A stretch of DNA of 64,000 bases, from positions 2,604,001 to 2,668,000 of the forward strand of contig NC_089432.1 in assembly GCF_026210795.1 (NCBI RefSeq). Direction: 5' to 3'. The notes under the pieces are model-generated. The model did no database searches. It was not told where the DNA came from and worked only from the letters and a program-made list of their open reading frames with translations. Source of the stretch: Rhizophagus irregularis (lineage: Eukaryota; Glomeromycota; Glomeromycetes; Glomerales; Glomeraceae). A program made the translations under genes and the position numbers. Within the stretch, counting starts at the first letter, position 1, and each line of letters opens with the position of its first letter. Below are positions 33,810-61,133 of this stretch, piece by piece.

Positions 33810-36800
33810 CTAGCCCTTGATTTTAACTTTGCCTTCAAAATCGCTATTCTGATCTAAAATAATTTAATAAATAAAAAAATAAATACATCAAATATAGGTA
33901 AAAATAAGTTTATTATAAGTATAGATGCTTACCAGACAATTGTGAAATGTCAATTTGCAGGGATTCTATCAAAAAAAAAATAAGTATTTTGTATACAATT
34001 AATTTGAATATTTTTTCATTAATCAATACCTTGAGACTCCATACTAATTTCAGAATACTTTTGCTCAGAAAGATTATTGTCATTGATTTTTAATTTTTTT
34101 AATTGAGAAATATCAATTAATAAGGATTCTAATTAAAGAATTGAAATAATATTAGTTAGTATTTTACAATTAATAAGAAATTTTATATTAATCATTACCT
34201 GAAGATTTTATGCTAATTATATCATCATTCTCTTTATAATAATCATCAGTATTTTTTGGTTCAGGAAGATTATTAAAATTAAGTAATCTACTGGTATAAA
34301 TAGCTTCTGAATGTGTTTTAAATGATATTCCTAAATTGGTTGAAATTGCACTGACCAATGTTCTACTATTGGTTATTTCTGATTCCTTAATTTGTTGTTG
34401 TATTCCTGTATAATTATCAAATTCGCTATGACCACTTAATTCCCTAAGCCATTGGCTTAACAATTTTTTAATTTCTTCTGCTTTTGGCCTATTTAATTGA
34501 TTTGCATCCAAGCATCTTTTAATTAAATTCACAATTAATTGAGGAACTCTAATATTGAATCTTGGTCTTAGTCCTTGACAAATTCTTATTGCTAAATTAT
34601 TATTATGGCTTACATCATGATATGGAGGTAATCCAGAAATTACCTCATACATAATTATACCAATACTGTAAATATCTGCAGCTTTGGTATAATCTTGGCC
34701 TCGTAAAATTTCAGGAGCAATATAAGGTAAAATACCATATATTTTATTTTTAGTATTTTCTGATGCATTATAATCTGCAGGTTTGCATAATCCCATATCA
34801 GTTATACATGTCATGCTTTTAAGCCTTAATATATTACCAATATGCAAATCTCGATGAATTAATTCTTCTTCATGAATATCTTTAAGTCCATGTGCAATGC
34901 TATGTAAATAATTAATTTTATCACTCCAACTTAATTTATCATAATTTCCATTTAAATAATTTCGCAAATTTCCACCTTCTGCATAATCTAAACCATAACA
35001 TAATTTTTTGTTTCTGGATCTTGAGTTATTCCATAAAATTTAATAATACGCTTTTGCAAGTTTAATTTGTAATGTAAGGTTATCTATATATTAAATAAGT
35101 ATTAGCACTAATAATTATAAAGATTTTAAATTTCAAATAGTAAAATAATTCACCTCATTCATAAATTCAAATGTAACATTTTTTGAATTATTTAAGCTTT
35201 TGAGTGCTACAAACATATTTTGATCTTTTCTTTTCCAATTTTGTTGTTTATTGTCCCATTCATCAATATATCCGTCAATCCATCTTGCTCTATATACTTT
35301 GCCAAACCCACCTTTTGCAATAAATTCAATATCATAAAATCTGTAGTAAGGTATCCATTCTAATGCTTTTTTGGACACATTATAATTACTATATGTTGAT
35401 AATTGGATACCTCGAATAAATTTATCAATATCTTCATTCCCACTAGTCCAATTTTTGAAGTTTTGCTGAAAATGGATTGTACTAAATACATATTTATAAT
35501 TATTGGTTTTTGGATCTTGAGTTACTCCATAAAGTATTTCAGCCTATAAATAAATTATATTAATGAAAATTTAAATTTTGAAATATTATTAATAATTAAT
35601 TTACCTCATATTTAAATTCTAATGCAATATCTGCCAAATTGTTCAAGTTTTTAAGAATTACATACATATTCTGGCCTCCTCTTTTCCAATTTTGATGTTT
35701 ATAATCCCATTCAATTATATATCCATCAATCCATTTCGCTCTATATACATCTTTTGTAATATATTCAATATCATAAAATTTATTGTAAGATATCCATTCT
35801 ATTGTTTTCTTGAATATTTCATAATCATCATGTGTTGATAACTGAGAATCTTGGATGAATTTATCAACTTTTTTATTACCACTAGTCCAATTTTTGAAAT
35901 TTTGTTGAAAATGTATTATACTACATGCATTTTTACATTTTTTACATTTATTATTCAAAACCATCATATAATTCTTAGCTTCTGAATCTTGAGTTATTCC
36001 GTAAGACATTTTAACCTATAAATAAATTATATTAATGAAAATTAAAATTTTAAAAATATTACTATTAATTAATTTACCTCATCTCTAAATTCTAATGCAA
36101 CATCTACCAGATTATTCAAGTTTTTAAGAATTACATACATATTCTGGCCTCCTCTTTTCCAATTTTGATGTTTATAATCCCATTCAATTATATATCCATC
36201 AATCCATTTCGCTCTATATACATCTTTCGTAATATATTCAATATCATAAAATTTATTGTAAGGTATCCATTCTATTGCTTTTGTGAATACTTTACAATTA
36301 TCATGTACTGATAACTGAACATCCTGAATAAATTTATCAACATCTTCATTACAACTAGTCCAATTTTGGAAGTTTTTCAAAAAATGCATTTTGCAACACA
36401 CATATTCACATTTTTCACATGTATCATTCAAAACTACTATATAGTTCTTAGTTACCAGATCTTGAGTTATCCCATAAAATTCATGAGTTATACAAAACTA
36501 TAAATAAATTATACTAGTGAAAATTAGATTTCAAAAATTTCATTAACCAATATATTAATTTACCTCATTTATAAATTCGGAACTGACATCTGTTGGACTA
36601 TTTAAGCTTTTAAGAACTACAGACATATTTTGGCCTTTTCTTTTCCAATTTTGATGTTCTTTATCCCATATGTCCATATATCCATCAGCCCATTTTGCTC
36701 TATATACTTTACAAAACTTATTTTCTGAAATATATTTAATATCATAAAATCTATTGTAAGGTATCCATTCTATTGCTTGGCATGTATAATTACTATGATC

Positions 36801-36950
36801 TGATAGCTGAGAATCTTGAATATATTTATCAATATAATTATTCCCACTAGTCCAATTTTTAAAATTTTGGTTAAACCGTTTTGCATTACATTCACTATCA
36901 CAATCACATGACTTAATCAGCTTTTTGGTAATTTTAGCAAAGAATTCCAT
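33810..36950 (-). pseudogene. Protein kinase with four serial N-lobes; one-base frameshift in the C-lobe exon
   Basis: Exons on the minus strand: 36950-36564, 36497-36078, 36015-35605, 35543-35154, 35083-34199, 34128-34030, 33966-33934 and 33853-33810. Each of the first four exons encodes a FxQNFKNWTSGN head, IDKFIQD, EWIPYN(K/R)FYDI and a kinase N-lobe with LK(S/N)LNN lysine. Only the fourth keeps a glycine loop (KGGFGKVY); the others read ITKDVYRA or SENKFCKVY. Exon 5 has the C-lobe: HRDLHIGN, DMG in place of DFG, APEIL, DIYSIGIIMYE. Around 34990 the frame breaks (GTTTAG where GTTTTAG is expected), and the exon length fits the later phases only if one base is restored. The last exons repeat an ESL.IDISQL motif. 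If the base loss is an assembly error the gene is complete. Confidence 0.75.
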
Positions 36951-42682: not shown

Positions 42683-43031
42683 GTGCAATATAACGTAATA
42701 GGCAAAAAATTACAAAATTTTATTAACACTATCAATGTAATTGATTATAATTATTATAAAAAGAGAGAAAATGGTATCTAAGAATAGAAAAAAAAATGTA
42801 AGAACCTTAAAGTTTGAGAGAAAATGAAAAAATCATTAGTTATTGATGGTAAACTCAATAATCGCCAATAATCTCAAACTTTGGACGAAAGAAGTAAAGA
42901 AACTCAAAACTGTACATAATAATTGACTTATAAGGAAAAGCTGTAAACAAACCTATTAACGCAACTTCTGGCAGGGAATCTTAGAAAAGAATGCGAAACA
43001 TATATTGGGTTTAAAATATTCGGTGAAAATC

Positions 43032-43160
43032 CACCCCAGCCAAATGATCGACATAGTTTATAAGCTGGATGTTCGTGCGCTAACTTATAGCTTATAAACT
43101 GCCCATGGGCATATGTAGCCCACGGGATCTGATTGGTTCAGAATGAGGACAATAATGTCC
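43032..43160. repeat. Left terminal inverted repeat of the KDZ element
   Basis: 129 bases identical in inverse to 60997-61125. Contains two internal inverted pairs (TTTATAAGCT / AGCTTATAAA and GCCCATGGGC). Confidence 0.92.
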
Positions 43161-44640
43161 TCATAATTATGGACTGTGATAGTCCTTTAGTTTAAAAATG
43201 AGGGCAATAATGTCCTCGTAATTATGGACTATGAAGTGCCTTCAATTTAAAAATGAGGACAATAATGTCCTCGTAATTATGGACTATGATATGCCTTCAG
43301 TTTAAAAATGAGGACAATAATGTCCTCGTAATTATGGACAATGACATGCCTTCAGTTTAAAAATGAGGACAGTAATGTCCTCGTAATTATGGACTATGAT
43401 GCGCCTTCAGTTTAAAAATGAGGACAATAATGTCCTAACGTAATTATGGACTATGACAAACCTTCAGTTTAAAAATGAGGACAATAATGTCCTCGTAATT
43501 ATGGACTATGAAGTGCCTTCAATTTAAAAATGAGGACAATAATGTTTTCGTAATTATGGACTATGATATGCCTTCAGTTTAAAAATGAGGACAATAATGT
43601 CCTCGTAATTATGGACAATGACATGCCTTCAGTTTAAAAATGAGGACAATAATGTCCTCATAATTATGGACTATGATGTGCCTTGAGGACAATAATGTCC
43701 TAACGTAATTATGGACTATGACAAACCTTCAGTTTAAAAATGAGGACAATAATGTCCTCGTAATTATGGACTATGATAAACCTTCAGTTTAAAAATTAGG
43801 ACAATAATGTCCTCGTAATTATGGACTATGATGTGCCTTCAGTTCAAAAATGAGGACAATGTCCTCATAATTATGGACTATGATAGACCTTCAGTTTAAA
43901 AATGAGGACAATAATGTCCTAACGTAATTATGGACTATGATAAACCTTCAGTTTAAAAATGAGGACAATAATGTCCTCGTAATCATGGACTATGATGCGC
44001 CTTCAGTTTAAAATGAGGACAATAATGTCCTCATAATTATGGACTATGATGCGCCTTCAGCTTAAAAATGAGGACAATAATGTCCTCATAATTATGGACT
44101 ATGATGCGCCTTCAATTTAAAAATGAGGACAATAATGTCCTCATAATTATGGACTATGGTAGACCCTTCAGTTTAAAAATGAGGACAATAATATTCTCAT
44201 AATTATGGACTATGTTGGGCTTTAGTTTAAAAATTAGGACAATAATGTCCCTATACATCATGGCGGATTTATAGAATACCCAAAAATTTGTCTGTCATGT
44301 CAAATTAAATAAATATTAGATGAGGTATTATTTTAGTCATCAAATTTCTATTTAAGTCCCAAATTTATTAGTGAACAGTCAAAAATGAGTTCTAAAAAAT
44401 TTTTTTGTACCTTAAATCTTGCATCTAACCAATTTTCCCATTATCTAAACAATTATTTCAGTATTAAAGGCACATCATTATTTGACATTTTTTAGGAAAA
44501 AGCTTAATGTTTTGGTAAGTCAATTTTGATTTCTGAGGGCGCAGCAGGATTTTTGCCAAATTTCATAAATCCGCTGCAATAAATGATGGACTATGATGGA
44601 CTTCAGTTTAAAAATAAAGGAAAAAATTATATAGTGGAAC
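43140..44640. repeat. Left subterminal array, about 21 units
   Basis: Head-to-tail units of about 50-60 bp: GAGGACAATAATGTCCTC, TAATTATGGACTATGA, then a variable four bases and CCTTCAGTTTAAAAA. Each unit has a GGAC..GTCC stem of 6 bp. A MITE (44256-44588) splits the last units. The right array is its inverse. Confidence 0.9.
44256..44588. mobile_element. CATCAT-ended MITE, copy 1
   Basis: Starts CATCATGGCGGATTTAT and ends ATAAATCCGCTGCAAT..ATGATG, an imperfect inverted pair. It interrupts the subterminal array and is closely matched by 51741-52006. The interior includes TTTGTCTGTCATGTCAAATT and GTCCCAAATTTATTAGTGAA. No coding frame. Confidence 0.7.
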
Positions 44641-45326
44641 GGAAAGTTCACTATGACGAGCTTTGACTGTATAACTTTAGTTGCTTATTTAAATTTTTTT
44701 TTACTAGCTAGTACTAGTATTTTTAATTATCCAATCAAAATTATAGTCCAGAGTTTAAGTATTAAATAAGTTGCAAATTCAACTGTAAAGTTCTTTAATT
44801 AATTGCATATGGTTTAATATATTTAATTTCAATTTTTATATAATGATAATATACATGATTTAAAATGTACAATTAGCTTACTGGTATATAATGAATTGGT
44901 CTGTTCTGTTCTGATCCAGTCTGGTTTTAACAAAACTAGTCTTTTAACTAGAACTGGATCAAATCAGCCTTTGAGCCATTTTAAAGATTGTTCTTTAGAC
45001 TGGTATAAAACTGAAATTATTTTGCTATATGTATGTAGCTTTGACTTAATCAGAAAGACAATGAAATTATCAGTCATAACTTAACAGTCATTATTTAATT
45101 ATATCTAATTTGTAATAAACTGATATGAAATTTGAAATATGAAATTTTAATATTATATGATAATGAAATTAAATCATTTTATTGGATGAAAAATTTATAA
45201 CCTTGGATTAAAGACCATAATAACCAGTTCTAGAACTGGGGAAATTATTTTATTACCAACTATAATGCTAACTATTCTACTATTCACTCAAATTATTTAT
45301 CTTAAAATATATGTTATTTAAATTAC

Positions 45327-46743
45327 TTAATATCTTTTCTTATCTTCAGTACTTAAATCAGAATAATTACAGAATAAAACATCTTCAGGCCATCCTATTA
45401 TAGTATATTTAGTTTGGTTATACCAATTTTTATAGGGTATTCTTTCTTTTGTTATCAAATCTATAATTAATTAAGTATAATTATTATTAACTTTCCATTA
45501 TATTTAAAATTATAATTATTACTTACTAAATTTCTCTTGTAAATATTTTCTAACTTTATCACGTGCATTCTTACTATTTGGACATTCTTTATCAATAATA
45601 GATAATTGATCATCTGCACTTTCTATCATAGTTATATCCTCTATATCTTTTTGAAATGTAACTTGTTTAATAATTTCATTTTTAGCTGATACAGAATAAT
45701 ATAAAAAGTTAGTTAATTTTTATAACATTTGTATAAAATAATATTATTATACCTGATTTTTTTAAACAAGAAAAATGATAAAAACTGTTATGAATTTCGT
45801 CTAGTTTTAAGCAGGACTTGTAAAATTCTTCACCAACTGGAGTTCCAAAATAAGAGATGTTCAATTCTTTGCTTAAAGGAATCACAAGTGTCAAAAATTC
45901 TACATCACAGGTAATTTGTAAAGTTCGATACTAGAAATCAAGCATTTAATAATTAATTATATAGAATTTTATATTTTAACTGATAATCTAATAATATATA
46001 TACATACCAATTTTCTAATTTCACAAATTTGTTTATTTAATTCAGCTTTGCGAAGTCTTATACTTTCTATTAATTTTGGTTCTTTATTGAATCTATTTTC
46101 AGATAATTCTTCAGCTCTGTTTTTAAAAGAATTCAATTGTTCTTTATTAAGCAATGCATATTCTTCAGCACATTGTTTTTGAGCTCCTGGAGTAGTAACT
46201 TTAATTTCTAGTAAATATATAATTCTTTTAATAAGTAAATATTTTATGATAAATTAAACCAATAATATTTATAGAACATACTATTTTTTTTGAACCATTC
46301 AGTTTGAAATGTATTCCATGAACTAATACTGCGAGTCTTTTTTGGTGCTGGTTCTCGATTATCTTTCATGATACTCTATAATTTATAAAAAATTTGGTCA
46401 AATCAAAATAAATTATTCTTTGAATTGTATTCAAAATTTTTAACCTTTATAAATGCTAGCTCAAGTTGGCATTCATCAGATAACATTTGGATTTCTGCAT
46501 CATGTTTTTGTTGTAAAGCAATAATCTTTTCATATTTTTCCTGTGTAAGACCTAAATTAAATTAATTAACTTAAATATAAACTGAAAGTATAAAGTATTT
46601 TAATATTTAAAACATTATATTGTAATTACCATCGCCTTTTTCTTTGAAAAGTTGATCACTAAAAGAATCAGATATGAGATATTAATACAAGGTAAATAAT
46701 TTTTAAACAGTATATCAAAAAAACTTTACGTTGAAATATCCAT
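45327..46743 (-). CDS. Unrecognised 8-exon gene carried by the KDZ element (304 aa)
   Basis: Exons on the minus strand: 46743-46730, 46658-46630, 46551-46445, 46375-46282, 46207-46008, 45930-45753, 45685-45527 and 45460-45327. All introns are GT-AG and 305 codons stay open to the TAA, strong evidence of a real gene despite tiny exons. Residues 15-50 form a likely coiled coil (QEKYEKIIALQQKHDAEIQ). A basic PAPKKTR stretch could be a nuclear signal, followed by SWNTFQTEWFKKN and a charged helical region to about 145. A hydrophobic middle (EFLTLVIPLSKELN) leads to an acidic linker and a C-terminal PYKNW..GWPEDVLF motif. I recall similar GWP-type ends in fungal hypothetical proteins but cannot name the family. 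Its place inside the element, divergent from the transposase, suggests an accessory or DNA-recognition factor. Confidence 0.8.
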
Positions 46744-46999
46744 TATGAGATGGGTGTAAAGAGATTAAATGATCAAAAAGATGAAAAGATTGTGATGAAA
46801 AAAGCATGAAAATGTTATTTTAATTGGCTGTCAGCTATTTTGATCAAGAATTATGATTGGCTAATAATCACCTGAAACAAACAAACAATCATTTGTACAA
46901 TAAATAATGAAAAAAATATGATTCAAAGTTTTGGTGACATACTTTTAATTACTAACTTATCAAATTGCTTCTCTTTACTGAATTTTTAGAAAGCTTACT
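46744..46999. promoter_or_regulatory. 5' flank of the 304-aa gene
   Basis: Contains ATTGGCTG and GATTGGCTAAT (CCAAT-box words, 46833-46866). No repeat like the ACGCGT array of the other accessory gene. Confidence 0.35.
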
Positions 47000-47845
47000 T
47001 ATTCACTGTTAGGGTATTTAACTCATTACCATTTCTAATATTTTCTCATTTTATTTTTTTAATAATTTTACTATTTTCTGAATTTTTTTGTTTTTATTAT
47101 TTATACTTAACTCCTCTGTTTCTCTATCACTTCTTTTATCCTTCTCTAATCAAGAATCTCCTTATCTTTTAATCCAATTTACCTATGCTTTGAGACTTCT
47201 CAGAACTTACTACTTCTTGACATCTCATTTTCCAAATTTTTTCATATATATACGTCAAATATAAGTCACAACATATCTTCAACATCTTTGAATCATCTAC
47301 TTTACAATGTTTATATTGCCAAATCTTGATGTTAGAAAGTCCACGCATTATCTCATATAGTAAATTCTTAATGTAAATAATCTTGATTTAACATTACTAT
47401 GTTGTAAAGCTTTTCTCTTTCTTTATTATCTTCTGTAATTACATTGACTGCATCTATCCATAAATTAATAGAAGAATCTTGTTACAATGCTACTATATAG
47501 TAGTATGATCCCATGTTTCTGTTTCTTCATTACATCTTATACATTTCTCTGAAGAAGTTCCAAAAACTTTCCTTTGATATAATATTTCATATGTTGGCAA
47601 TGTTTAAAGAAACTTTTTGATCCTAAAAGCTCTAATTTGAGTATCCATCGCATTAGTTGATGATTTTGATACACTTGTTTCATTACGAATTATCATAAAC
47701 AAAATTGGCCAATTGATGTTAACTTATATTAGTTACAAATAGCTGTTCTAATTATTTTAATAACATAATTTCTTTCTTATTGTTAAGACTACTAAGGTCT
47801 TTGGCCCATTTCTATAACAACCTTCCATATTTTATTTTTTAAAAA
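47000..47845 (-). pseudogene. Decayed LINE C-terminus (outer copy)
   Basis: Minus-strand pieces read LPTYEILYQRKVFGTSSEKC, CIRCNEETETWDH (CxxC zinc motif near 47510-47550) and upstream fragments in other frames. It is a diverged relative of the LINE that follows; many stops. Confidence 0.55.
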
Positions 47846-47849
47846 AAAA

Positions 47850-50800
47850 TTTGCACTGCATTTCTTTATTAAACAATACCATAGATATACATATTAACGT
47901 CAGAAATACCTAGAGGCATGTGAAAAAGCACATGACCCTATAGCAAACCAGTCTATTTAAATACAAAGAGCATATATAATTATATATACCTGAGCGTGCA
48001 AAAAGAACTAACAACAATATATAATCGATGTCACTCAACCCAAAAGAAACAATACAAAATAAAAAAAGAAAAACAAAAAACTTTCACACATAACATATAT
48101 AAAAACTCTAGACCTAACAGAAAACTAAAATTTAACTAAAGTAAGATTACAAGTAACTTCCATTATACGGAAATGTGTTTAAAACCAAACGAAACTTTCA
48201 TTAGTGACCACTCGCCCAGAATTATCACACCTCTTTTCCAACTTCCATCACCTATAATCCACTTATCCCTTTTTTTTATTTTTTTAATTTTAATAATGCA
48301 TTTATTATCAATTACAAAAAGATTACATAAAAAAATTTTTAAAACACTAAAAAATAATTAAAAATTTTAATTATCTTCTATAACTAAAAGCATTTTATAC
48401 TAAAAAATTTTTTTATACTAATTTATTTTAATACCCCCATGATTTCGTAATTGATATACCTTCCATTATTTCTAATATTGTTTTCTATATTTTTTCTTTA
48501 TCTTTTTCTATATTATCTGCTGTTTTGTATTTTTTCTCGCTTTACCTCCTCCTTTTGCTCTTTTGATCTTTTTTACGTTTCTTTTTCTCACCTTTCTTTA
48601 AATCCTTCTTTTCTTCTATCGCCACTACATCTTTACATCTTTTATCCCATATTTTCAATCTTATATTCTCATAACAAAAACACCACAATTCTTCTATAAT
48701 CATATTGTATTCTTTTTCTTCAAAATAAGATTGAAATTGTTATTATATAATCCTCTAAGCATCTCCCATTCTCTACTAAAACCTAATAAAATTCTTGTAG
48801 GCTTTTCTAATACTTGAACAAAATCCTATTAATATCTCATAATATTGTCGAATCATCAATCTTTTTTTCATCCTCCAACTTTTTATCGAATTCTCTATAA
48901 TTTCTCTTACAGAAAATTCATTACACTCACATTTCCATTAATTATACCAATCTTCTTCTTCCTTATTGCATCTTGGGCAGGTATCATTATCAATCCAAAT
49001 ATTTTCCTTTTAAAAAGTACACTATATGTTAGTAATTCTTTTATCCAATTTTTAATTTTATACGCTCTTTCTTTTGTGTCCTCTTGCGCACATTGCCAAA
49101 ATGTAAATTTGTTCCATTGCTTATAAATTTTAAAGACTTTACCCAATCGAATTTATTTCTGTAATTATAGGAAAATAAATCTTCAATCTTTTTACTATTT
49201 AAAATTTCGTTCTTCCATATCACTTCTGAAACTTTCTTTCGCCATCCCCTTAAATCTCCTAAAATCAAATTATATTTCCAATATAAATTGAATTCGTTGG
49301 TCACTAATCCCCCTTCATTAAAGTCTATCATATATGTTTCATTTTTGCTTTCTTTCATTTGCAATAGAATTTATCCATTTCTTCTTTACATATTTTTATA
49401 TCGTTCGCCTCCTTCTCCGTACACGAAATCGTTCTTATATTCATTTGCGATCAAAACTTTTCTATTACCAATAACTCCATATTGTATTCATTATCTAACC
49501 TTCGTCTTGTACTTAAATTTTCTATAATTCTTTGATAATTCACAAAATTTCCCATCTAAACCTAAAATTAATTCGCTATTACTATTTAATAAAATGATAC
49601 CTATTATCAAACATCTTAATAAAATTTTGTATTCATTCTCAAACAATACTTTAAATTTTCTGTTAAAATTAATCTCATTCTTTGTAACGAATTCTTCATG
49701 TCTTATCTTCCACATTACTAAATATTCAATCGATTTTTTCCCATTTTCCTTAACTTTACTTTTTAGTTTCATAACCTCTATCATTAAAAAATTTACCTTC
49801 CTCCTAAAACTAAAATCGTCTTTCTCTAAAATACTATTCTTTAAAATTCTATCAGATTTTTATTTGTATTAACCAAATTATCTATCATCTCAATTCTTGT
49901 ATTAAATCTTTATTCTTTTTATTCTTCTCTTAAATATTTTTCCACCAGATCATTTATTTTTAATATTTCGGAATGTCTCATAAGGTTTGATATTCCAACC
50001 TTCGTTCCGTTTTCTAATAATCCTACTTTCTTCATTTTAAATAAATTAAACATTCAATTTTACTCTCTTTATTCATATTTTTTTTTACCTATATTCTTTT
50101 TACAACCCTTACATTTAATTAAAGTAGGTGAATCATCTATATTTATATTCTCATTTATCATGATCCAATGTATCCCTATCCTCTTATAATTTTTATTTCT
50201 TGATTTTTTCCTATCTTCTCCAAAGATAGGAAATCCTTTTTCATCATTCCATGTTATTAAATTATTTCTTGACACTTTCTCATTTTCATCAAAAATTTTC
50301 ATATGAATATTATTTCTATCAAAATTTTTATTTTTATATTAAATTTCTCATCTCTTTATTTTCTCTCACTTCGTTTTCTACAATCTTAAACCAATTAGGT
50401 ATTTTACCTCTAAAACTCAAATCATTTCCTATAAAACATGTTTCCACTTCATTATTCTAAATTGATTTGCTTCCAATAATTGTTCTAAAAAGAGAATTTC
50501 TTTCTTTCTTCGTGATAATGCACTTCTTTAAATTTCTGAATCAGGTAATAGATCTATTATCTCTATATTACCACCTTTAATCTTATGCCCTGCATTTTCG
50601 TCTAAAATCTCATGATTGCATAAACTCATGTTTCTGATTTCAACAAGTTAATTGCATCGTTAATCTAACAATTGCGTCCTTTTATTGCTTTACCATTTAT
50701 ATCTCCTATGCACACTGCGGTCCACAATCTCATTTATTCTTGCATTATCTTGATTTTAAATAAAGTACTCAATTTTTCATTACCATTTGCTAAATAAATA

Positions 50801-51190
50801 ACATTCTTACTTAAACTTTCAAGTTGCAGATCGTAAATATTTTTTAACCCATAAAATCTTTCTCATATAAAATCATTTTTTAAAGCTTTCATAATTTGTC
50901 CCCATCAAAATTTTTCCTTCGTTAGAATTTTACTTAGTCATTTACCAGAATTTTCAAAAATAATTTTCTCGCTGTCTCTATTAAAGTAATTGGTTGTATC
51001 AATTTCAAATCTTGATTCCAGTCGGATAAATTAGACCTTTTTTCCATTCTCCTAAAATTACTCCACACTCCATACCCTCATTAATTATTCCTAACAAAAA
51101 CCTTTTGTTAAATTTTTACAATATTTCCAATAGTCATATGGAATCCCACATTCCCACTAATATCTGGAGCTTTATTATTTTTTGCGTGCT
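47850..51190 (-). mobile_element. 5'-truncated, decayed non-LTR retrotransposon (LINE)
   Basis: Minus strand from about 51190 (5') to the A-run tail near 47850 (3'). Near 51000-51060 it reads EWKKGLIYP, then in another frame DLKLIQPITLIETARKLFLK, the classic reverse-transcriptase block of this family. Downstream pieces are LITWNDEKGFPIFGE and KCKGCKK (50302-50069), WKNEILNSKKIEDLFSY and WVKSLKFISNGTNLHFG (49364-49041), then CPRCNKEEEDW near 48960. The 3' tail AATAAAGAAATGCAGTGCA equals that at 8985-9012. The catalytic YADD-type region is not readable and stops are frequent, so it is dead. Plus-strand frames over 48170-50460 are shadows. Confidence 0.75.
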
Positions 51191-51740
51191 GGCATCTCTA
51201 TAAAAAAAATAAGAAATTTCAGAAACATTTCTTTAAAACAATTAAATTAAAGAAAAAGCTCTATCTCCTATAAGTGTCTACCTTCTTTGTTTAATGGCAC
51301 CCTTTGAAAAACTTTAAATTTATATTTCATTTATACAGTATTCTCTATTGTCTCATGTTTTATTATACAAGTAAAGATTTTGATTATCTCAAATTTAGCT
51401 ATAATAAATGATGGTACTGGATTATATTATAAATAGTTGATAGAAGCCAGGTGTAGAGTACTGAAATATTTGCAAAGAAATCTTAAAATAAAATTGGAAT
51501 TTTAACAATTTAATTAGCGTTAATTAGGATAATCATTAAAAGCCGAAACCAAATTTACTTTTATACCATGTGAAATCAGACAATCAATACAAAATATGAC
51601 GTAATAAAAGTTATTGGAAAAATCGAAAAATCAGAATTTTTTTATTTGATTATAATAAATATAAAAATAATTATTAAAAGTTTAATATTCAGTTTCATAA
51701 TAAATATATAATATTTATATAACAACTTAATTAAAATTAA
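51191..51740. other. AT-rich stretch inside the KDZ element
   Basis: No gene seen. May hold more 5' LINE sequence (KPxYDYWKYCKN-like piece at the border) but not readable. Confidence 0.35.
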
Positions 51741-52006
51741 CATCATGGCAGATTTATGAAATACCCCAAAATTTGTCTGTCATGTCAAATTAATTATATG
51801 TTTGATCACCAAATTTCTATTTAAGTCCCAAATTTATTAGTGAACAGTCAAAAATGAGCTTTAAAAATTTTTTTTTCCAGTGTTAAAGGCGCATCATTAT
51901 TTGACATTTTTTTAGGAAAAATTTCTGTAAGTCAATTTTAATTCCCAAGGGCGCAGCAGGACTTTTTCCAAATTTCATAAATCTTTATAAATCTGCTGCA
52001 ATGATG
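51741..52006. mobile_element. CATCAT-ended MITE, copy 2
   Basis: Same orientation and sequence as 44256-44588 with internal deletions and a duplicated CATAAATCTTTATAAATCTGC end. Both copies lie inside the KDZ element, 7.5 kb apart. Confidence 0.7.
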
Positions 52007-52429
52007 ATAATCAGTAATATTTATTTCTTGAAAAAATAATCGCAAATGAAGTTAAATTTTTTCGCCTAATATGAAGAATTTTATGCCACAATAAATTTGC
52101 ATCATTTTTGTGATTGATTTAATATATAAATTTGCACAAGAAAATAATTTTTACACAAAAACCCTATAACTATCTTTTTTTATTTAGTAATCATTAATTT
52201 AAATTTGATTGATGATATATTACATTTTATTTTCAATTGACCGTTTATGATTAAATAATCCTTTGTAATTTAAATTGTATTATAGTTACTAATTAAAAAA
52301 AATTCAAATAAAATGTATAGATTTTTTTTTATTATTTTAGCCCCCATTTGATCGGAGTACAAACTATAAATAAGTTTTCTATAATTTTTAACAGGTAATT
52401 AAAGTAATTATTCTATTTTGAGTTACAAT

Positions 52430-52740
52430 CTAAAAATAGTATAGAAAACATTTCAAACATTTTCCCATTACGCGTTTAATTCTAAAAATAGTATAGAAAA
52501 CATTTCAAACATTTTCCCATTACGCGTTTGATTCTAAAAATAGTATTGAAAACATTTTAAACATTTTTCCATTACGCGTTTAATTCTAAAAATAGTAAAA
52601 CATTTTCCCATTACGCGTTTAAGTCATTTAATTCTATAAATAGTATAGAAAACATTTCAAACATTTTCCATTACGCGTTTAATTCTAAAAATAGTAAAAC
52701 ATTTTACCATTACGCGTTTAATTCTAAAAATAATTAATTA
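52430..52740 (+). promoter_or_regulatory. Array of six ACGCGT boxes upstream of the 555-aa gene
   Basis: Six tandem units of 38-60 bp, TCTAAAAATAGTATAG.., CATTTTCCCATT, ACGCGTTTAATT. ACGCGT stands at 52470, 52522, 52574, 52613, 52673 and 52712, about 100-350 bp before the ATG at 52820. ACGCGT is the MluI cell-cycle box bound by MBF (Mbp1/Swi6) in yeasts. Whether this fungus uses it so is inference. Confidence 0.7.
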
Positions 52741-52819
52741 CAAATGTACTAGAATAAAATAACATAAACAATCCCTATTTTTCTTTTTTTTAACGTTTAC
52801 GAAATTTTAAACTTTTACA

Positions 52820-54810
52820 ATGTCAAATAATATAAAGGTAAATTGTACTTTTAGTTATTATAGTTAAATAAAATTATTTATAATGTATTTAATATGTTTA
52901 TTTATTTAACTTTAAGGACAATAAAGTTTCATTATCATTATCTGATAATGACAATATAAAAATTTCAGAAGCTTTATCTTTTATTCGTAATAAACTTCAA
53001 GGCCGCCTTAAAAACATTTCTGTCATCAACGATCGTACAGCTGTCGTCATATATGGAAAACATAAAGATAGATTGATGATCGATTTGAAGGATAATAATT
53101 ATTATGAAAATTTAGAAGTAAGATTATTAAAATTAAATTCTTTTTTTTCTCTATAATTTATATTTATATTTTTATATGCATATTAGGAAAAACTCGAAGC
53201 ACTTAAAGCTGAAAATAATAATTTGCTGGTAAATAGTGTTATATATAATACAAATGTGTTTTAATTTTAAAATTTACATTTTATTAAAATTTTATTTAAT
53301 ATATTAAAATTTACTTTAGTCTGAATTGAAGAAGTTTGAAACCCTGGCGCGTTTTGATGGATCATTTTCAACAGTCGTATCATCAGATAATGATAATAAC
53401 GAAACTAGTCTAGTTGATAACATATCTACAACTTCTACTGCATCTAATAATTTGCCATCAATGTCATCCCCGTCTATATCAACTTCTTCTAAACCTTTTA
53501 AATTAGAAGATTATATTACAGTTTTAAATAATGATTTAAATACCGTTAATCAATCAATTGAAGATGATTCTGATGAAATTTGGGAGAAATTAAATTCCAG
53601 ATGCCACAAAAAATTTGGATATAATAACGAAATCAAACAACCTACAAGAGAGGATATAAAATGGGGGGCTGATATTCTACCTATTTATGCAGAATGGAAA
53701 AAACTAAAAGATTTTAAATGTTTAATAGAAAAATGGATCGCTAAAATCAACGAATATATGCAGAAAAATGATATGTTATCGTCGTCCCCAACTTTAATTT
53801 CATCTTCATCTTCGTTCTCAACATTAATTCAACCATCACCATCTTCAACATCAGTTCCATTATCATTTGTCTCTTTAATTAAAGGAAAGAAAGTAAGAGA
53901 TAATGTAAATGAAAGCATAGAAGTTGTAAAAATTAATGTAGATAATAAAAATGAAGTGGACGAAGATGTAGAAATTATGGAGATTGATGTAGAAAATGAC
54001 GATATACAAAATGAAGAAACTGAAGGTATTTCTGTTTTTTATTGAACTAATAAATATAATTATTATTAATTTATATTTATATAATCTATTATATTTCTTA
54101 AATCAATAGATAAAGCAAAAAAAAACCTTGAAGCTAAAGAATTAAAAGAGAAGAAATTCAAAAAATTTGGTGAAAAACTCCGAAAACTAGTTATGGATGA
54201 TCTTCAATCAAATACTCATGATTCACCAGTTCAAAAATTGGCAGATAAAGATATGGTTAATGAATCGGATTTACAAAATAATAATTTAACGCACTCCCTT
54301 AATCTTTTAACTGCTGAACCAATTAAGATTATAGATAAAACAAGTGGTATACAAAGAGTCAAGCAGTGGGCCCTCCAAAAGAACCAAATAGAAAAAATTG
54401 GAATAGCGTTCAATGTATTCAAGTTTTATCATAGGATGTCCTTGATTGATATTTATAATGAAATTAATGTTGTGGCAGAATCAAATTTTCCAAATCAGAA
54501 GGGTAAACAAAGGACATTTGTAAAAGAGATTATTTGTATTCAAGAAGGCATTTCAGAACGTTCAGAACGACGTTTTAAAACAAGTGCAATGAGGTTACAA
54601 CATATCGTTAGTGCAGGAATATCCTTTAATCAGATAATTAAAGTAGGAATGCACGTATCTGATTTTGAATCCACCAACCATTTTTATGAAATATTTATGG
54701 AAGCACTTGATATCAATTCAATAGAAAATTTAAATGAAGGAGTACGACCATTGAATACAAAAATTTTATTTGATAAATTGTCAGCATATGAAATAATGGA
54801 ACTAGATTAA
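52820..54810 (+). CDS. Unrecognised 5-exon gene carried by the KDZ element (555 aa)
   Basis: Exons 52820-52837, 52917-53117, 53187-53228, 53320-54025 and 54110-54810, all GT-AG, 556 codons open to the TAA. Residues 7-73 form a compact domain with SEALSFIRNKLQGRLKNIS and VVIYGKHKDRLMIDL. Residues 74-92 are a short coiled coil (EKLEALKAENNNLLSELKK). Then come Ser/Thr-rich low-complexity stretches around a conserved-looking block (EIWEKLNSRCHKKFGYN.., ILPIYAEWKKL), an acidic stretch, a lysine-rich helix and a C-terminal domain with FNVFKFYHRMSLIDIYNEIN and AMRLQHIVSAGISFNQI. No family recognised. It lies between the LINE remains and the transposase, same strand, 537 bp before it, and probably belongs to the element. 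Its promoter carries six ACGCGT boxes. Confidence 0.8.
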
Positions 54811-55347
54811 TGAGTTTTAGCATTTATTAATTTTTAGTTAAATTTGTATTGTTTTTTTTTTTGAAGTAGGGAATTATTATAAAATCTTTACTAAATATTA
54901 TTAAAATTATTGAAATAAAAGATTCTTAAAGTAATAGTTCAGTATAAATTAAAGTTACCGTGCATTGCTTAAAAGGCCCATTTTAGCTTCTATATTTAAT
55001 ACCGACCCAAAATATCATAATATATAGATTTTTTTTATTTTCTTAAATTAAGAATATTAAACCATTAAACCATTACTATAAGTTGAATGAAATCTTTCGT
55101 ACATTAAATTTGTTTAATACAGCAGGATGTATGTATACACCCGATCTAATTAAATGTTTTAAACCTGGTAAATTGATTTATACCTAAGGTATTAGGCAGT
55201 GTTATAAGGTACTTATGGTAATATCTGCTAATCTGCTTTTATTTTATAAATAGATTTGATCTGCAGCAAGTAGTCTAATTGGCTAATTTAGTTTGATCAA
55301 TCCCGAAAAATTTTTTTTTGTAAATTTATTCTTTTTACATATTTAAT
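54811..55347 (+). promoter_or_regulatory. Intergenic region before the KDZ transposase
   Basis: AT-rich with CTAATTGGCTAATTTAG (CCAAT-type word) near 55274-55290. No coding frame. Likely the terminator of the 555-aa gene and the promoter of the transposase. Confidence 0.35.
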
Positions 55348-58300
55348 ATGAATAAAGGAAATTTGAATAAAAAAGGTATTTATATTATTGTTATTAAAGA
55401 AATATATTTAAATTGTTACTTAATATCTTTTATTTTTAGGTAAAATTAGTTACAGGCCTTATTTAGTTTCTTCAAATAAAAAAAATGCAAAAAAAGTAGT
55501 TATTAATCGATATGCAAAAGGAAGTAACAAATATCGAGCCAAAAATTTATCTGAAAATATATATAAATCTACTGAAATAGTGGATGAAGATAGAAACAAT
55601 GATGAATGGATAGATATTGATATTATAAAAGAAGATGAAAACTATAGTTCTGCTAAAAATACATATAAAAATGCTCAAAAAAATTTGTCCGAAAATTGGA
55701 GAAAAATCTCACCAAAATTATTTGACATTATGATAGAAAATAATGCAATTAATAAGGACTCCAAATGCTTCAAATGTAATTCACCTGCCATTTGTTATTG
55801 TTTAGATTGTGGTCTTAATACTTATTTGTGTTTAGAGTGTAATACTTTATATCATAAGGATATAAATTTATTTCATAGAAAAGTTTTTATAAGTAATATT
55901 TTTGATAAAGAAGAAATAAAACTACCACAATTATGTACAGGATTTTGTGAGCATGAAATTAAGGAAATATCAATCATTAATTTAAAAGGTAAAGTATAAA
56001 TCTTATTTGTTATACTTTAATAAAATTTTCAATTAAATAAATATTGCATTAAATAGGAATATTTAAAGCAAAATTTCCAACTTGTGAAGGTTTGGTCGAA
56101 ACATTAATCAGGCATAAATTATTTCCTTCCACCCCTATAAATCCACAAGTTGCTTTCTCATTTGAATTATTTGATATTTATCAAGAATTATTACTCGAAG
56201 CACATGTATCATATCTTTCATTTTGTCGAGTATTAGAATCATTATTCTCTGATCAAGATATAACTAGAGTTAAGTTTTTAAAAAATTTCATTATATTAAT
56301 GTTATATAGTTTACTAATATGTTTTTATTATTATTAGAACATATATTATCTTTTTAAATCTGCTTTTCATCAATATTTAGGATTAAAAACTATGATTGAA
56401 AATACTATTAATAAGTTATTTAGTAGTAAATCACAATTTAATTGTCCAGCTTGTCCACAGGTAACTTTATTTTTTGCTTGATTTACTTCCCATTTATATT
56501 TTTAAAAACTTTTTTACATTATATTTTGAATTAATAAACAAATTTAATTATAGCCAGAAGAGAAAAACTCTAAAATTATAATTGCATTGGATGCTAATTT
56601 TCAACTTAAACGAATGAAAAGTGCTGGTTCTAATATTGGTGAAAGAATAATTGAAGAATCATTTATTTTAAACCAAAATAAATATGATGAATGGGTACAA
56701 AATTCGATTAATTTAAGTTCATTAAATACATTAAATATAAATAATAATAATGCGGTAAGTATTCTATATATATATTTGTTGTTTATTTAACTTCATTTAT
56801 TATTTTAATTTGTTAATTATTAATTATTTATTATTTCATTAAGCAAATAAATGTATGTGACAGCCATTTTAAAGCGGCTAATCAAACAAAAGCAAACCTT
56901 AAATCCAATTATTTGGACGATACAGGAATATTTGGAAGTACATGTAGGCACGGCATTCCTTTAAAATTTATTAATTTAAAAGGAATTGGGGAAAGGTAAT
57001 TTATATATTATTGTAATATTAACATTTGATATTAACATTAGTTATTCATATTATATAATTACATTTTTATAGATTTTCTTTAGCAGAATATATTTTATCA
57101 GATTTACATAATATGTTTTATGAAGATTCTTCTACATTTATTGTCTTATATGATATTGCATGCAATCTTCATTCACATGTAGAAAAAAGTGAAAGTAGAC
57201 TTTTTCCATTCAAATCTCGATTTAATTGGTGTGTTTCAATATTTCATGCCTATGCACATTCAATGAAATGCCAATTAAATTACCACCCAAGGGCTTGTAA
57301 TTCCATAGGATTAACTGATGGGGAAAGTTTAGAAAGACTGTGGTCATATTTAGGACGCTTTTCTTCTACAACAAGATATATGAGACCACATCATAGATTG
57401 GATATTTTAGAAAAAGGAATTCAGCATATAAGTAGAAAAATGATTAGTAATTTAGGTAATGTTCAATTAAATTTATGATAATTTAAAATATTTATATTTT
57501 AATTTATATTTTTATTTTATATCAGCATGTAACTTAGTTAAAAGGTTTAAAAATGCTTATAAAATAATGAATGTATCAGTAAAAATATTAAAAGAAATGG
57601 AACAAATGCATGGAATTGATGAAAGTAAAATACTTTATTATATTCAGTGCCAGTATGAATCCAATTTTGGTAAATATTATGTATTTTATTATGCTAATTT
57701 TTTAAAAATTAGTTTTAATATATGAGATTTTTAGTTTTTAGGCAACATTTAATTGGAAAAGAGTTGTATTTCTTAAACCTAATGGAATTACATCCATATG
57801 AGTATGTACTAATTTTATTCAAGTAATAATTATTTTAATATTACTAAATACTAATATTATTTTTTTAGGATTGAAATATCAAAAGCTAACTCTGAAAGAC
57901 AGTTGGAATCATTAAAAAGATCTCGCTCATTATATATAAAAAAAGTTGAAAAATGTGAATCAGATTTAGATATACCTGAATCAAAAAGATGGAATCCATT
58001 TAATCCTATATATTCCAAATATTTTCATGATTATTGTGAACGTAATTTGGATTTAATTTCTGATAAGCTTAGAAAATTTCGTAATGAATATATATTTAAA
58101 AATTCACAATTATATAATCAAGACCATATAGGTAATTATATATATTTGTAATCTTAACTTATTTATTAAAATATTATTTAACCATATTTATTTTTATTAG
58201 GTCATAAGTTAACATTAAAAATTAAATCAAGTATTAAAGATATTTCAAAACAAATTGAAATAAACATTTCATATTATGAATATTTCAGATTACTTGCACA

Positions 58301-58992
58301 AGAAAATTCATTTTGTAAAGATTATCCAAAAGCAATATTTAATGAAATAGTTAATCATACGTCAGATTTTTGGCAAATATTAGATATATCAATTAATGAT
58401 AAAATGGATAATATACCTCGAATAGTTATATTCAATTCAATTAAAAATTTTAATAATTTACAACGGTCTAAAGAAGAAATATCATTAATTGTGCAAGAAT
58501 TAAAAAGATTATATGATTTCTGGATGAATTATAAAATTAAAATTGAAAATAAATTACAACAATTACAACAATTTAATGAAAAAACTACAAAAAATGTAAG
58601 TATTATTCATTTTTATCTTGTAATTATTTTGAACAAGCTATTAATAATCTAAATAAAAAATTTGTTTGTAGTATGGAATGATTTGTATTTTGATGAAATA
58701 TTATAAAAATGTAAGTAAAAATTTAGAAAATTGTCAGATAGCTTTAAACAAAATTGAAAATTACAAAGTGAATAATACTGTACAAGTAGTAGATGTTCCA
58801 ATTTATGATTTAATTAATGAGATTGAGGAAGATAATCTTTTAAAAGGAGATTTAGCAGAAAATTTAACTGAATTAGAAATTTGTGATAATGAAGAATGTA
58901 TAGAATATGAAGGGGAAATAGTAGATAAAAGTAAAGATTGTGAAGAAGAAATAATAACAGAAGGTGAAAGTATGGATTATAAAATAGTATAA
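55348..58992 (+). CDS. KDZ-superfamily transposase, 12 exons, open frame (945 aa)
   Basis: Exons 55348-55375, 55440-55988, 56057-56268, 56338-56460, 56554-56754, 56844-56995, 57073-57455, 57526-57669, 57735-57801, 57869-58131, 58201-58595 and 58672-58992. All GT-AG, every phase fits, no stop. Residues about 119-160 are a cysteine cluster (CFKC..CYCLDC..YLCLEC..H..LFH) of the CxC type that precedes KDZ transposases. Then AFSFELFDIYQELL, a CPACPQ zinc-like motif, and the catalytic core: ALDANFQLKR (D about 317), CDSHFKAANQ, CRHG, LYDIACNLHSH (D about 449), FHAYAHSMKCQ and GLTDGESLERLWS (E about 506). Later come RWNPFNPIY and a helical C-terminus with acidic tail. It should excise and insert the 18-kb element in the nucleus. 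Completeness plus identical ends suggest recent activity. Confidence 0.93.
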
Positions 58993-59560
58993 TCGATCCA
59001 AAAGGAGCAATATGAATTGAATATCTAATAAATCTGACAAATATTTTGATACTTAAAAAAATTAGTCATATATAATATAATATTTATTATAACAACTTTG
59101 AAATAAATAGAAGAAACCTATTTTACTTTAAAAATAACTTTTCTAACAATTTGATTAGGAGTTTAAAGCGGTAAAAAAATATTGCAATTAAAATATATTT
59201 TTATTTCTCTAAATTTTCTGCCACATTATTACCTTTTAGTTTAAATGGTTATGGCACAATTTCCTGACGGGATTACATTTGCCTGAAAGATTTGGCCAGT
59301 GTTATGCAGGTTATGCATGAACACGTGATCAAACGGCCAGCGTTAGGTTATTGGAAAAATGTCCTGTCAGGGAACAGTCCATAAGTGGTTTAAATAGACA
59401 ATCAAATATGAAAATACATTTTAAACAAAAAGAACATGCTATTTATAATATAACCTGTTAATAGTAAGTTATATGAGTATACTACTGTTATTATTTTAAA
59501 TGAGATCTATAATTATAAAGACACTATGATTGTCCATTTACTAATTAGGAGGTTCCTATA
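58993..59560. other. Stretch between transposase and right array
   Basis: AT-rich. At about 59258-59375 an imperfect inverted pair (TTCCTGACGGGA..ACATTT / ACATTTTT..GTCAGGGAAC type) could be a small MITE with a GGCCAG-bearing interior and an ACACGTGA word. Confidence 0.35.
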
Positions 59561-61010
59561 ATCTATATATGAATACAGAAGCTGAATATAATTTAAATGA
59601 GAGGTCCAATATTGTCTGTAATTATGAGAGCTATTTTAAACTAAAGGACTATCATAATCTATAATTACGAGGACATTATTGTCCTCATTTTTAAACTGAA
59701 GGCACATCATAGTCCATAAATACGAGGACATTATTGTCCTCATTTTTAAGTTGAAGGTCTATCATAGTCCATAATTACGAGGACATTATTGTCCTCATTT
59801 TTAAACTAAAGGACTATCATAGTCCACAATTACGAGGACATTATTGTCCTCATTTTTAAAATGAAGATCTATCATTGTCCATAATTACGAGGACATTATT
59901 GTCCTCATTTTTAAACTAAAGGACTATCATGGTCCATAATTACGAGGACATTATTGTCCTCATTCTTAAATTGAAGGCACTTCATAGTCCATAATTATTA
60001 GGACATTATTGTCCTTATTTTTAAACTGAAGATCTATCATAGTCCATAATCACAGGGACATTATTGTCCTCATTTTTAAACTGAAGACACTTCATACTAG
60101 TCCATAATTACGAGGACATTATTGTCCTCATTTTTAAGTTGAAGGTCTATCATAGTCCATAATTACGAGGACATTATTGTCCTCATTTTTAAACTAAAGG
60201 CTTGTCATAGTCCATAATTACGAGGACATTATTGTCCTCATTTTTAAACTGAAGATCTATCATGGTCCATAATTACGAGGACATTATTGTCCTCATTCTT
60301 AAATTGAAGGCACTTCATAGTCCATAATTACAAGGACATTATTGTCCTCATTTTTAAACTAAAGAACTATCATAGTCTATAATTACGAGGACATTATTGT
60401 CCTCATTTTTAAATTGAAGGCACTTCATAGTCCATAATTACGAGGACATTATTGTCCTCATTTTTAAACTAAAGGACTATCATAGTCTATAATTACGAGG
60501 ACATTATTGTCCTCATTTTTAAATTGAAGGCACTTCATAGTCCATAATTACGAGGACATTATTGTCCTCATTTTTAAACTAAAGGACTATCATAGTCTAT
60601 AATTACGAGGACATTATTGTCCTCATTTTTAAACTGAAGGCACATCATTGTCCATAATTATTAGGACATTATTGTCCTCATTTTTAAACTGAAGATCTAT
60701 CATGGTCCATAATTACGAGGACATTATTGTCCTCATTTTTAAACTAAAGGACTATCATAGTCCATAATTACGAGGACATTATTGTCCTCATTCTTAAATT
60801 GAAGGCACTTCATAGTCCATAATTACGAGGACATTATTGTCCTCATTTTTAAACTAAAGAACTATCATAGTCCATAATTATGAGGACATTATTGTCCTCA
60901 TTTTTAAGCTGAATAAGGCGCATCATAGTCCATAATTATGAGGACATTATTGTCCTCATTTTTAAACTGAAGGCGCAACATAGTCCATAATTACGGGGAC
61001 ATTATTGTCC
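59560..61010. repeat. Right subterminal array, about two dozen units
   Basis: Inverse of the left array: TCATAGTCCATAATTACGAG, GACATTATTGTCCTCATTTT, TAAACTGAAGG units of about 55-60 bp with a hairpin in each. The first few units (59500-59650) are degenerate. Confidence 0.9.
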
Positions 61011-61125
61011 TCATTCTGAACCAATCAGATCCCGTGGGCTACATATGCCCATGGGCAGTTTATAAGCTATAAGTTAGCGCACGAACATCCAGCTTATAAA
61101 CTATGTCGATCATTTGGCTGGGGTG
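60997..61125. repeat. Right terminal inverted repeat of the KDZ element
   Basis: Inverse of 43032-43160 without a mismatch that I can see; followed by the target duplication TGAAAATC at 61126-61133. Confidence 0.92.
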
Positions 61126-61133
61126 TGAAAATC

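What the first reader, a model, noticed from the sequence alone, without database searches (positions are those of the whole stretch)
43032..61125. Complete 18-kb KDZ transposon with identical ends and cargo-like genes
A 129-bp identical inverted repeat pair, a perfect 8-bp target duplication (TGAAAATC) and an open 12-exon KDZ transposase define the whole element without doubt about its limits. Two further multi-exon genes of unknown family lie inside, one divergent and one co-directional. In mushrooms KDZ elements are known to travel with TET/JBP genes (established); here the companions differ. A complete, probably young KDZ element with its own accessory genes would be valuable for learning what these genes do.
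Basis: partly seen in the sequence, partly recalled or inferred. Interest (0 to 1): 0.9.

Follow-up and report, generated by a model that had tools for sequence, protein, structure and literature searches.

The report
Three-gene KDZ transposon with palindrome arrays
This is a complete, recently mobile 18-kb jumping gene in a plant-symbiotic fungus whose three genes and long arrays of one palindromic DNA site recur together in several distant relatives, so its two extra genes look like working parts of the transposon rather than passengers.

Summary
In detail: 43032-61125 is a complete KDZ DNA transposon with 129-bp identical inverted ends, 8-bp duplication TGAAAATC and an open 12-exon transposase. 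The genome matches Rhizophagus irregularis. Four further copies differ in the 15-kb core by 7-16 substitutions, so it moved recently. "Cargo" is not the best word for the other genes. Gene A (weak HMG-box and GTF2I-repeat matches, agreeing by sequence and fold) and gene B (no known family) recur with KDZ in three other families whose transposases are 43-54% identical to this one, in four different gene orders, between related ends. KDZ and A trees share one split. All four families carry inverted subterminal arrays of one palindrome, GGACA-N4-TGTCC: 1467 genome-wide against 21 for the reversed control. Gene-less derivatives examined (6 of 6) keep it. B genes lacking KDZ and A have it inside or beside the gene in all 11 looked at, of about 32. 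Best reading: a multi-component transposon working like maize Spm/En, with B the likeliest palindrome binder. Binding, transposition and roles are inferred. KDZ elements with accessory genes are known; this gene set and site were not found in the papers searched.

The parts
43024..43031 (+). Left copy of the 8-bp target site duplication TGAAAATC
   Evidence: Sequence; flank comparison
43032..43160 (+). Left inverted end, identical for 129 bp to the right end; CACCCCAGCCAAATGATCGACATAG at the tip
   Evidence: tip pattern 78 matches genome-wide, 0 in the reversed control
43142..44250 (+). Left subterminal array, 55-bp unit, about 20 copies, 17 exact GGACA-N4-TGTCC sites between 43147 and 44237
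45327..46743 (-). Gene A, 8 exons, 304 aa in this copy (320 aa in public model P0001): HMG-box-like and GTF2I-repeat-like protein
   Evidence: Model; public proteins; fold; Pfam below cut-off
47000..51200 (-). Stretch without intact genes; 48500-49700 is a degraded dispersed repeat, 99-100% shared by the five copies and 65-90% similar at other places
52429..52732 (+). Tandem array just upstream of B holding 6 of the window's 7 ACGCGT sites
   Evidence: similar array upstream of B in the C25 family
52820..54810 (+). Gene B, 5 exons, 555 aa, no known family; candidate palindrome binder
   Evidence: Model; P0007; own-genome search
54170..54171 (+). Donor site implied by public models P0012-P0014 that join the start of B to KDZ exon 1 or 2
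   Evidence: no RNA seen
55348..58992 (+). KDZ transposase, 12 exons, 945 aa, with CxC cysteine cluster
59634..61015 (-). Right subterminal array, 55-bp unit, 25 copies, 25 exact GGACA-N4-TGTCC sites between 59671 and 60997
60997..61125 (-). Right inverted end, 129 bp identical to the left end
61126..61133 (+). Right copy of the target site duplication TGAAAATC

Best explanation
The element is an autonomous KDZ cut-and-paste transposon made of three component genes plus cis sites. KDZ is the transposase, acting on the CACCC...GATCGRCA ends and leaving 8-bp duplications (anatomy shown; catalysis inferred from the family). B is the likeliest protein to bind the GGACA-N4-TGTCC palindromes arrayed at both ends, gathering the ends and perhaps regulating its own gene (inferred). 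A, with an HMG-box-like and a GTF2I-repeat-like domain, probably bends DNA or opens chromatin at the ends (inferred). Gene-less derivatives keep ends plus palindromes and are presumably moved in trans. It works like maize Spm/En, where one protein cuts and another binds subterminal repeats, but it is not a CACTA element.
For: Trio together in 11 loci of four families with transposases 43-59% identical between families. 10 of 30 paired elements carry all three genes. Exact 8-bp duplications in 16 of 16 elements read at both ends. KDZ and A trees both pair C25 with C10 at support 100 (four sequences each). Codon position 2 most and position 3 least conserved in five comparisons covering the three genes. 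GGACA-N4-TGTCC 1467 against 21 reversed control; spacing 5 gives 41 against 11; 42, 62, 28 and 19 sites in the four family stretches, no site in 50 first-order resamples of each. Six of six gene-less or trio-free elements examined keep it. B loci without KDZ and A: 3 of 3 on the listed part of C1 lie among palindromes, and 8 of 8 read at a predicted place have 1-5 sites.
Against: No binding, excision or RNA data. B tree unresolved (support 45). The B fold failed (mean pLDDT 35.5) and B has no Pfam match over cut-off, so a DNA-binding role is by association only. A's best-scoring sequence matches to HMG box and GTF2I are weak and P0001 is below both cut-offs. The 8 free B loci are near relatives, chosen among the better hits, and not independent. 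About 32 B loci have no KDZ or A hit. Three of 14 KDZ loci, fragments, lack A and B hits; A has 2 relics without KDZ. In three of four families (window, C25, C10) the palindromes lie only in the end arrays, not within B.
Confidence: 0.6

Rival explanations
1. The same multi-component transposon, but the palindrome is read by the KDZ transposase (CxC zinc cluster) or by A rather than by B; B serves another step.
For: KDZ has a predicted cysteine cluster over Pfam cut-off; A has two DNA-binding-like folds; KDZ, A and palindromes also occur together in all 11 trio loci.
Against: B, not KDZ or A, accompanies the palindrome at the 11 free B loci looked at.
Confidence: 0.25
2. A and B are passengers (cargo) captured by an ancestral element and carried along without a part in transposition; the arrays are ordinary subterminal tandem repeats.
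For: Accessory genes of unknown function are common in giant KDZ elements (PMC12477816, passages). The gene-less 3-6 kb derivatives move without carrying A and B, though they could be helped in trans. Array copy number varies (42-55 sites among the five copies).
Against: Conservation of all three in four diverged families despite reshuffled order, congruent KDZ and A trees, and codon-position bias; the exact palindrome kept while unit length changes.
Confidence: 0.1
3. GGACA-N4-TGTCC is a binding site of a host factor that elements and B genes have collected, for example to be switched on or off by the host.
For: Array copy number varies freely between copies, as a regulatory array might; the site also occurs in introns of B genes.
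Against: In the first 100 listed rows (part of C1) most sites fall in clusters rather than singly, and 3 of the 4 clusters that I count there hold a B gene; the list is a part only.
Confidence: 0.05

Closest known systems
Zisupton and Dileera elements of the KDZ superfamily; Cryptococcus KDZ1
   Same: KDZ transposase domain with CxC cysteine cluster, inverted repeats and 8-bp duplications (PMC12730594 sections read; PMC12810828 passages: KDZ1 about 11 kb, 241-bp inverted repeats, 8-bp duplications, CxC1)
   Different: Here two conserved companion genes without TET/JBP, and palindrome arrays; none of the passages read mentions these
TET/JBP-bearing Kyakuja, Zisupton and Dileera of Dikarya
   Same: KDZ element with an extra gene
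   Different: No TET/JBP domain found in the three products at E up to 1; Kyakuja is described with 7-bp duplications and no inverted repeats, unlike this element
Maize Spm/En and other CACTA elements
   Same: Large element, subterminal repeats at both ends, one large transposase and a second protein, gene-less derivatives (PMC2613891 passages); public models that join B to KDZ recall the alternative transcripts
   Different: Different transposase family, 8-bp duplications, different ends, and a palindromic site; binding by B is not shown
HMG-box and GTF2I-repeat DNA-binding proteins
   Same: A's residues 62-127 and 237-318 resemble them by fold and weakly by sequence
   Different: P0001 is below Pfam cut-offs; a fungal transposon protein; both in one protein

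Membership tests
KDZ superfamily of DNA transposons | KDZ transposase domain | tested here: met
   174.3 bits, cut-off 26.6
KDZ superfamily of DNA transposons | CxC cysteine cluster upstream of the domain (frequent, not universal) | tested here: met
   CxC2 34.5 bits (cut-off 27), CxC1 28.7 (26.9)
KDZ superfamily of DNA transposons | Inverted ends and 8-bp target duplications (Zisupton, Dileera) | tested here: met
   129-bp identical ends; 8-bp duplications in 16 of 16 elements read
KDZ superfamily of DNA transposons | Several copies at different sites | tested here: met
   Five loci, four with both ends and different 8-bp duplications
KDZ superfamily of DNA transposons | Catalytic acidic residues | not tested
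   No residue-level comparison was made
Zisupton, Dileera or Kyakuja sub-lineage | Placement in a transposase tree with reference members | not tested
   No reference sequences were compared; 8-bp duplications and inverted ends differ from Kyakuja as described in PMC12730594
TET/JBP-bearing transposons | TET/JBP dioxygenase gene | tested here: not met
   No such Pfam domain in the three products at E up to 1
CACTA/En-Spm superfamily | CACTA transposase and CACTA ends (features recalled) | tested here: not met
   KDZ domain instead; ends CACCC, duplications 8 bp
Spm-like two-protein mechanism | A second element protein binds subterminal repeats | not testable with these tools
   Only association of B with the palindrome was seen
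HMG-box proteins (gene A) | Pfam HMG-box match over cut-off and three-helix fold | tested here: inconclusive
GTF2I-like repeat proteins (gene A) | Pfam GTF2I match over cut-off and fold | tested here: inconclusive

The most novel reading that the evidence does not exclude
B is the founder of an unrecognised DNA-binding family that reads GGACA-N4-TGTCC. About 32 further B genes, with palindromes inside or beside those looked at, form a genome-wide trans-acting network with the KDZ elements: autonomous elements, gene-less derivatives and free B genes all obeying one operator, convergent on Spm TNPA. Protein A would then show GTF2I-type repeats serving as DNA-binding parts of a fungal transposon.
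Probability: 0.4. Interest if true: 0.85.

Novelty: new variant of a known kind. Interest (0 to 1): 0.72.

Why it matters
It turns one odd element into a testable system: three genes, one exact 14-bp palindromic site, near-identical copies that speak for recent movement, and gene-less derivatives. Papers on R. irregularis say that much of its repeat content is unclassified (PMC11075540 abstract in the listing; PMC8647823 passages), and KDZ is not among the families named as found in the passages read. If B binds the palindrome, a new DNA-binding family and a regulatory network come with it, and the long-open question of what accessory genes of giant KDZ elements do becomes directly testable.

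Tried and rejected
A third accessory gene in 47-51 kb: rejected; frames are broken and 48500-49700 is a degraded dispersed repeat. I first took it for a dead LINE; the pieces tested gave no convincing Pfam match and open frames of 200 aa or more from four other stretches gave no tblastn hit, so its class stays open.

Ends enclosing only the transposase: no KDZ hit lies in the 20 other paired elements; that search scores only its best candidates. C4:569912, C4:1940139 and C4:2960319 have related ends but no homologs of the window element's frames (one stray 25-residue hit at E 5e-4) and hold what look like nested unrelated elements.

An ACGCGT (MluI-box-like; name recalled) array as a shared cell-cycle promoter: upstream of B in the window family and C25 only, none in the C5 and C10 stretches. 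Kept as a lead.

Membership of A in a mushroom protein family that I recalled was sought with the last protein search: of 16 hits, 13 carry names from Rhizophagus irregularis, R. clarus or Glomus cerebriforme and 3 carry no organism. Not shown. B had 8 hits, all R. irregularis. The B fold is unusable. dN/dS failed, so codon positions were used. A two-site pattern search did not complete. Absences from the list exclude nothing.
Full report
WHERE. The window is part of contig C4 of a 146.7-Mb genome in 32 contigs. Public Rhizophagus irregularis proteins list contigs of exactly the lengths of C2 (6138810; P0001) and C25 (3600274; P0016), so the genome is taken to be R. irregularis, an arbuscular mycorrhizal fungus (lineage).

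THE ELEMENT. It spans 43032-61125 with duplication TGAAAATC on both sides. The first 129 bp of the two ends are identical in inverted orientation; inside them follow inverted arrays of a 55-bp unit, about 20 copies left and 25 right. Three multi-exon genes can be read with GT-AG introns throughout: A on the minus strand, B and the KDZ transposase on the plus strand. Public R. irregularis models agree: P0001 equals the window's A up to residue 302, and P0007 has the length of B with 100% in the search table, one residue apart by eye. Only KDZ has Pfam domains over cut-off.

AGE. The end sequence finds four further copies, on C2, C9, C10 and C4:927 kb. In the core the ten pairs of copies differ by 7 to 16 substitutions in about 15.1 kb, small indels apart. 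KDZ is open in 4 of 5 copies; the C4:927 kb copy has a 2.9-kb insertion in it and lacks the outermost 22 bp of one end. B is open in 5 of 5. A in the window copy differs from the other four by a 1-base indel near its end, is 16 residues shorter than P0001 and has two other last residues. In the C25 family the B region of the three other copies is 99.85% identical to C25. Both families therefore moved recently; that they move now is not shown.

RECURRENCE. The KDZ profile finds 14 loci, A finds 13, and 11 are shared (my merging of rows; the searches score only their best candidates). B finds the same 11 plus a relic at C15:561 kb and about 32 other loci (my merging). The 11 fall in four families: the window family (5), C25 with C17, C20 and C28 (4), C5 (1) and C10:4.2 Mb (1). 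The three KDZ loci without A or B (C15:2.59 Mb, C18:3.49 Mb, C10:2.78 Mb) match only in pieces; the two A loci without KDZ (C6, C1) have stops inside. KDZ identity between families is 43-59%, A 37-60%, B 25-37%. Taking KDZ as plus, the orders are A- B+ K+ (window), K+ B+ A+ (C25), B- K+ A- (C5) and A- B- K+ (C10:4.2 Mb). KDZ and A trees both pair C25 with C10 at support 100; the B tree is unresolved at 45. The end sequences pair the same way by eye. In five pairwise comparisons covering the three genes, codon position 2 is the most and position 3 the least conserved.

ENDS. A pattern drawn from the four families, CACCCNANNCNNNNGATCGRCAWAG, has 78 matches and none in the reversed control. They form 30 inverted pairs 3.0 to 30.3 kb long; 10 pairs hold the trio, and no KDZ, A or B hit lies in the other 20. 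The eleventh trio locus, C4:927 kb, has one end that fits the pattern. Of the 30, 16 were read at both ends and all 16 have exact 8-bp duplications. Twelve of the 30 are 3-4 kb long; the one of these read in full, C9:1313713, has a single open frame of 70 aa or more.

THE PALINDROME. Although unit lengths differ (55, 26/53, 49, and 99/65/44 bp), every family's arrays contain GGACA-N4-TGTCC: 42 sites in the window, 62 in the C25 stretch, 28 in C5 (its left end continues outside that stretch, with 6 more sites) and 19 in C10. All lie in the two subterminal clusters except two single sites in C5. Fifty first-order resamples of each stretch gave none. Of spacings 0 to 12, only spacing 4 is populated, apart from three single matches. 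Genome-wide there are 1467 sites against 21 for the reversed control; the spacing-5 pattern has 41 against 11. C4:569912, C4:1940139, C4:2960319 and C9:1313713 have 2 to 5 sites each, and the end pieces of C2:1730881 and C7:4861433 have 3 to 8 per end: six of six trio-free elements examined. In C4:2960319 the right-hand sites lie about 3 kb from the end, probably because of a nested insertion.

B FOLLOWS THE PALINDROME. The three KDZ-less B loci on the listed part of C1 lie among palindrome clusters. From one (C1:3.14 Mb) I predicted sites about 0.5 kb upstream of the middle domain, apparently in the first intron. Eight other B loci were then read in 600-bp pieces at that place: 8 of 8 have 1 to 5 sites, all at spacing 4. 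These were among the better-scoring loci and several share site positions, so this is a property of one gene group, not eight independent cases; about 21 of the 32 loci were not looked at. The B gene of the C5 element has a site between exons 1 and 2. In the window family, C25 and C10 no site lies within B. No KDZ or A hit lies at the free B loci. This is why B is ranked first as palindrome binder.

SPLICING. Public models P0012-P0014 join the start of B, through a donor at 54170, to KDZ exon 2 (P0012, P0014) or inside exon 1 (P0013). In C25 KDZ lies upstream of B, and in C5 and C10 on the opposite strand, so such joining would be particular to the window family. No RNA data were seen.

LITERATURE. 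KDZ elements carrying TET/JBP genes are known (PMC12730594: abstract and sections 4, 11, 19), and accessory genes in giant KDZ elements too (PMC12477816: passages; it also reports nested insertions shared by many copies, as seen here). PMC12810828 (passages) describes Cryptococcus KDZ1 of about 11 kb with 8-bp duplications. PMC11075540 (passages) used a KDZ profile on R. irregularis without naming KDZ among the families found in those passages; PMC8647823 (passages) has no occurrence of KDZ or Zisupton in its main text. PMC9297572 (passages) describes Zisupton in nematodes. The Spm comparison rests on passages of PMC2613891. Searches joining KDZ, Kyakuja or Zisupton with Rhizophagus, HMG, subterminal repeats, palindromes or accessory genes, and GTF2I with transposons and fungi, listed no paper whose title or abstract start reports this gene set or site; the original KDZ paper of Iyer and co-workers was not seen. 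Absence is claimed only for these searches of an open-licence library.

Noticed in passing
G000 C1:206053, C1:3141766, C1:3186022, C2:1329268, C7:4416000, C28:2947631 and about 26 more loci: A group of free B-like genes (26-41% identity to B) without KDZ or A hits, with GGACA-N4-TGTCC sites inside or beside the 11 looked at; whether they are elements of their own is open.
   Followed up: partly
window 52429-52732 and G000 C25:3327369-3327825: Tandem arrays just upstream of gene B rich in ACGCGT (6 of 7 in the window, 7 of 10 in the C25 stretch); absent from the C5 and C10 stretches.
   Followed up: partly
window 24595-26250, minus strand: Open frame of 551 aa made largely of a 36-residue repeat (108-bp tandem repeat at 24607-25755), Sel1-like by eye.
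   Followed up: no
window 35495-36869: A 473-bp unit repeated about 2.9 times in tandem.
   Followed up: no
G000 C4:927105-948785: A copy of the window element with a 2.9-kb insertion in KDZ exon 10; the insertion's ends are related inverted repeats (CACTGGTCGAAGT-like), so another element has jumped into it.
   Followed up: no
G000 C15:561318-562718, C6:3973824-3974390, C1:6579000-6579401: Relics of B (58-80% identity by piece) and of A (50-81%) without a detected KDZ: traces of older related elements.
   Followed up: no
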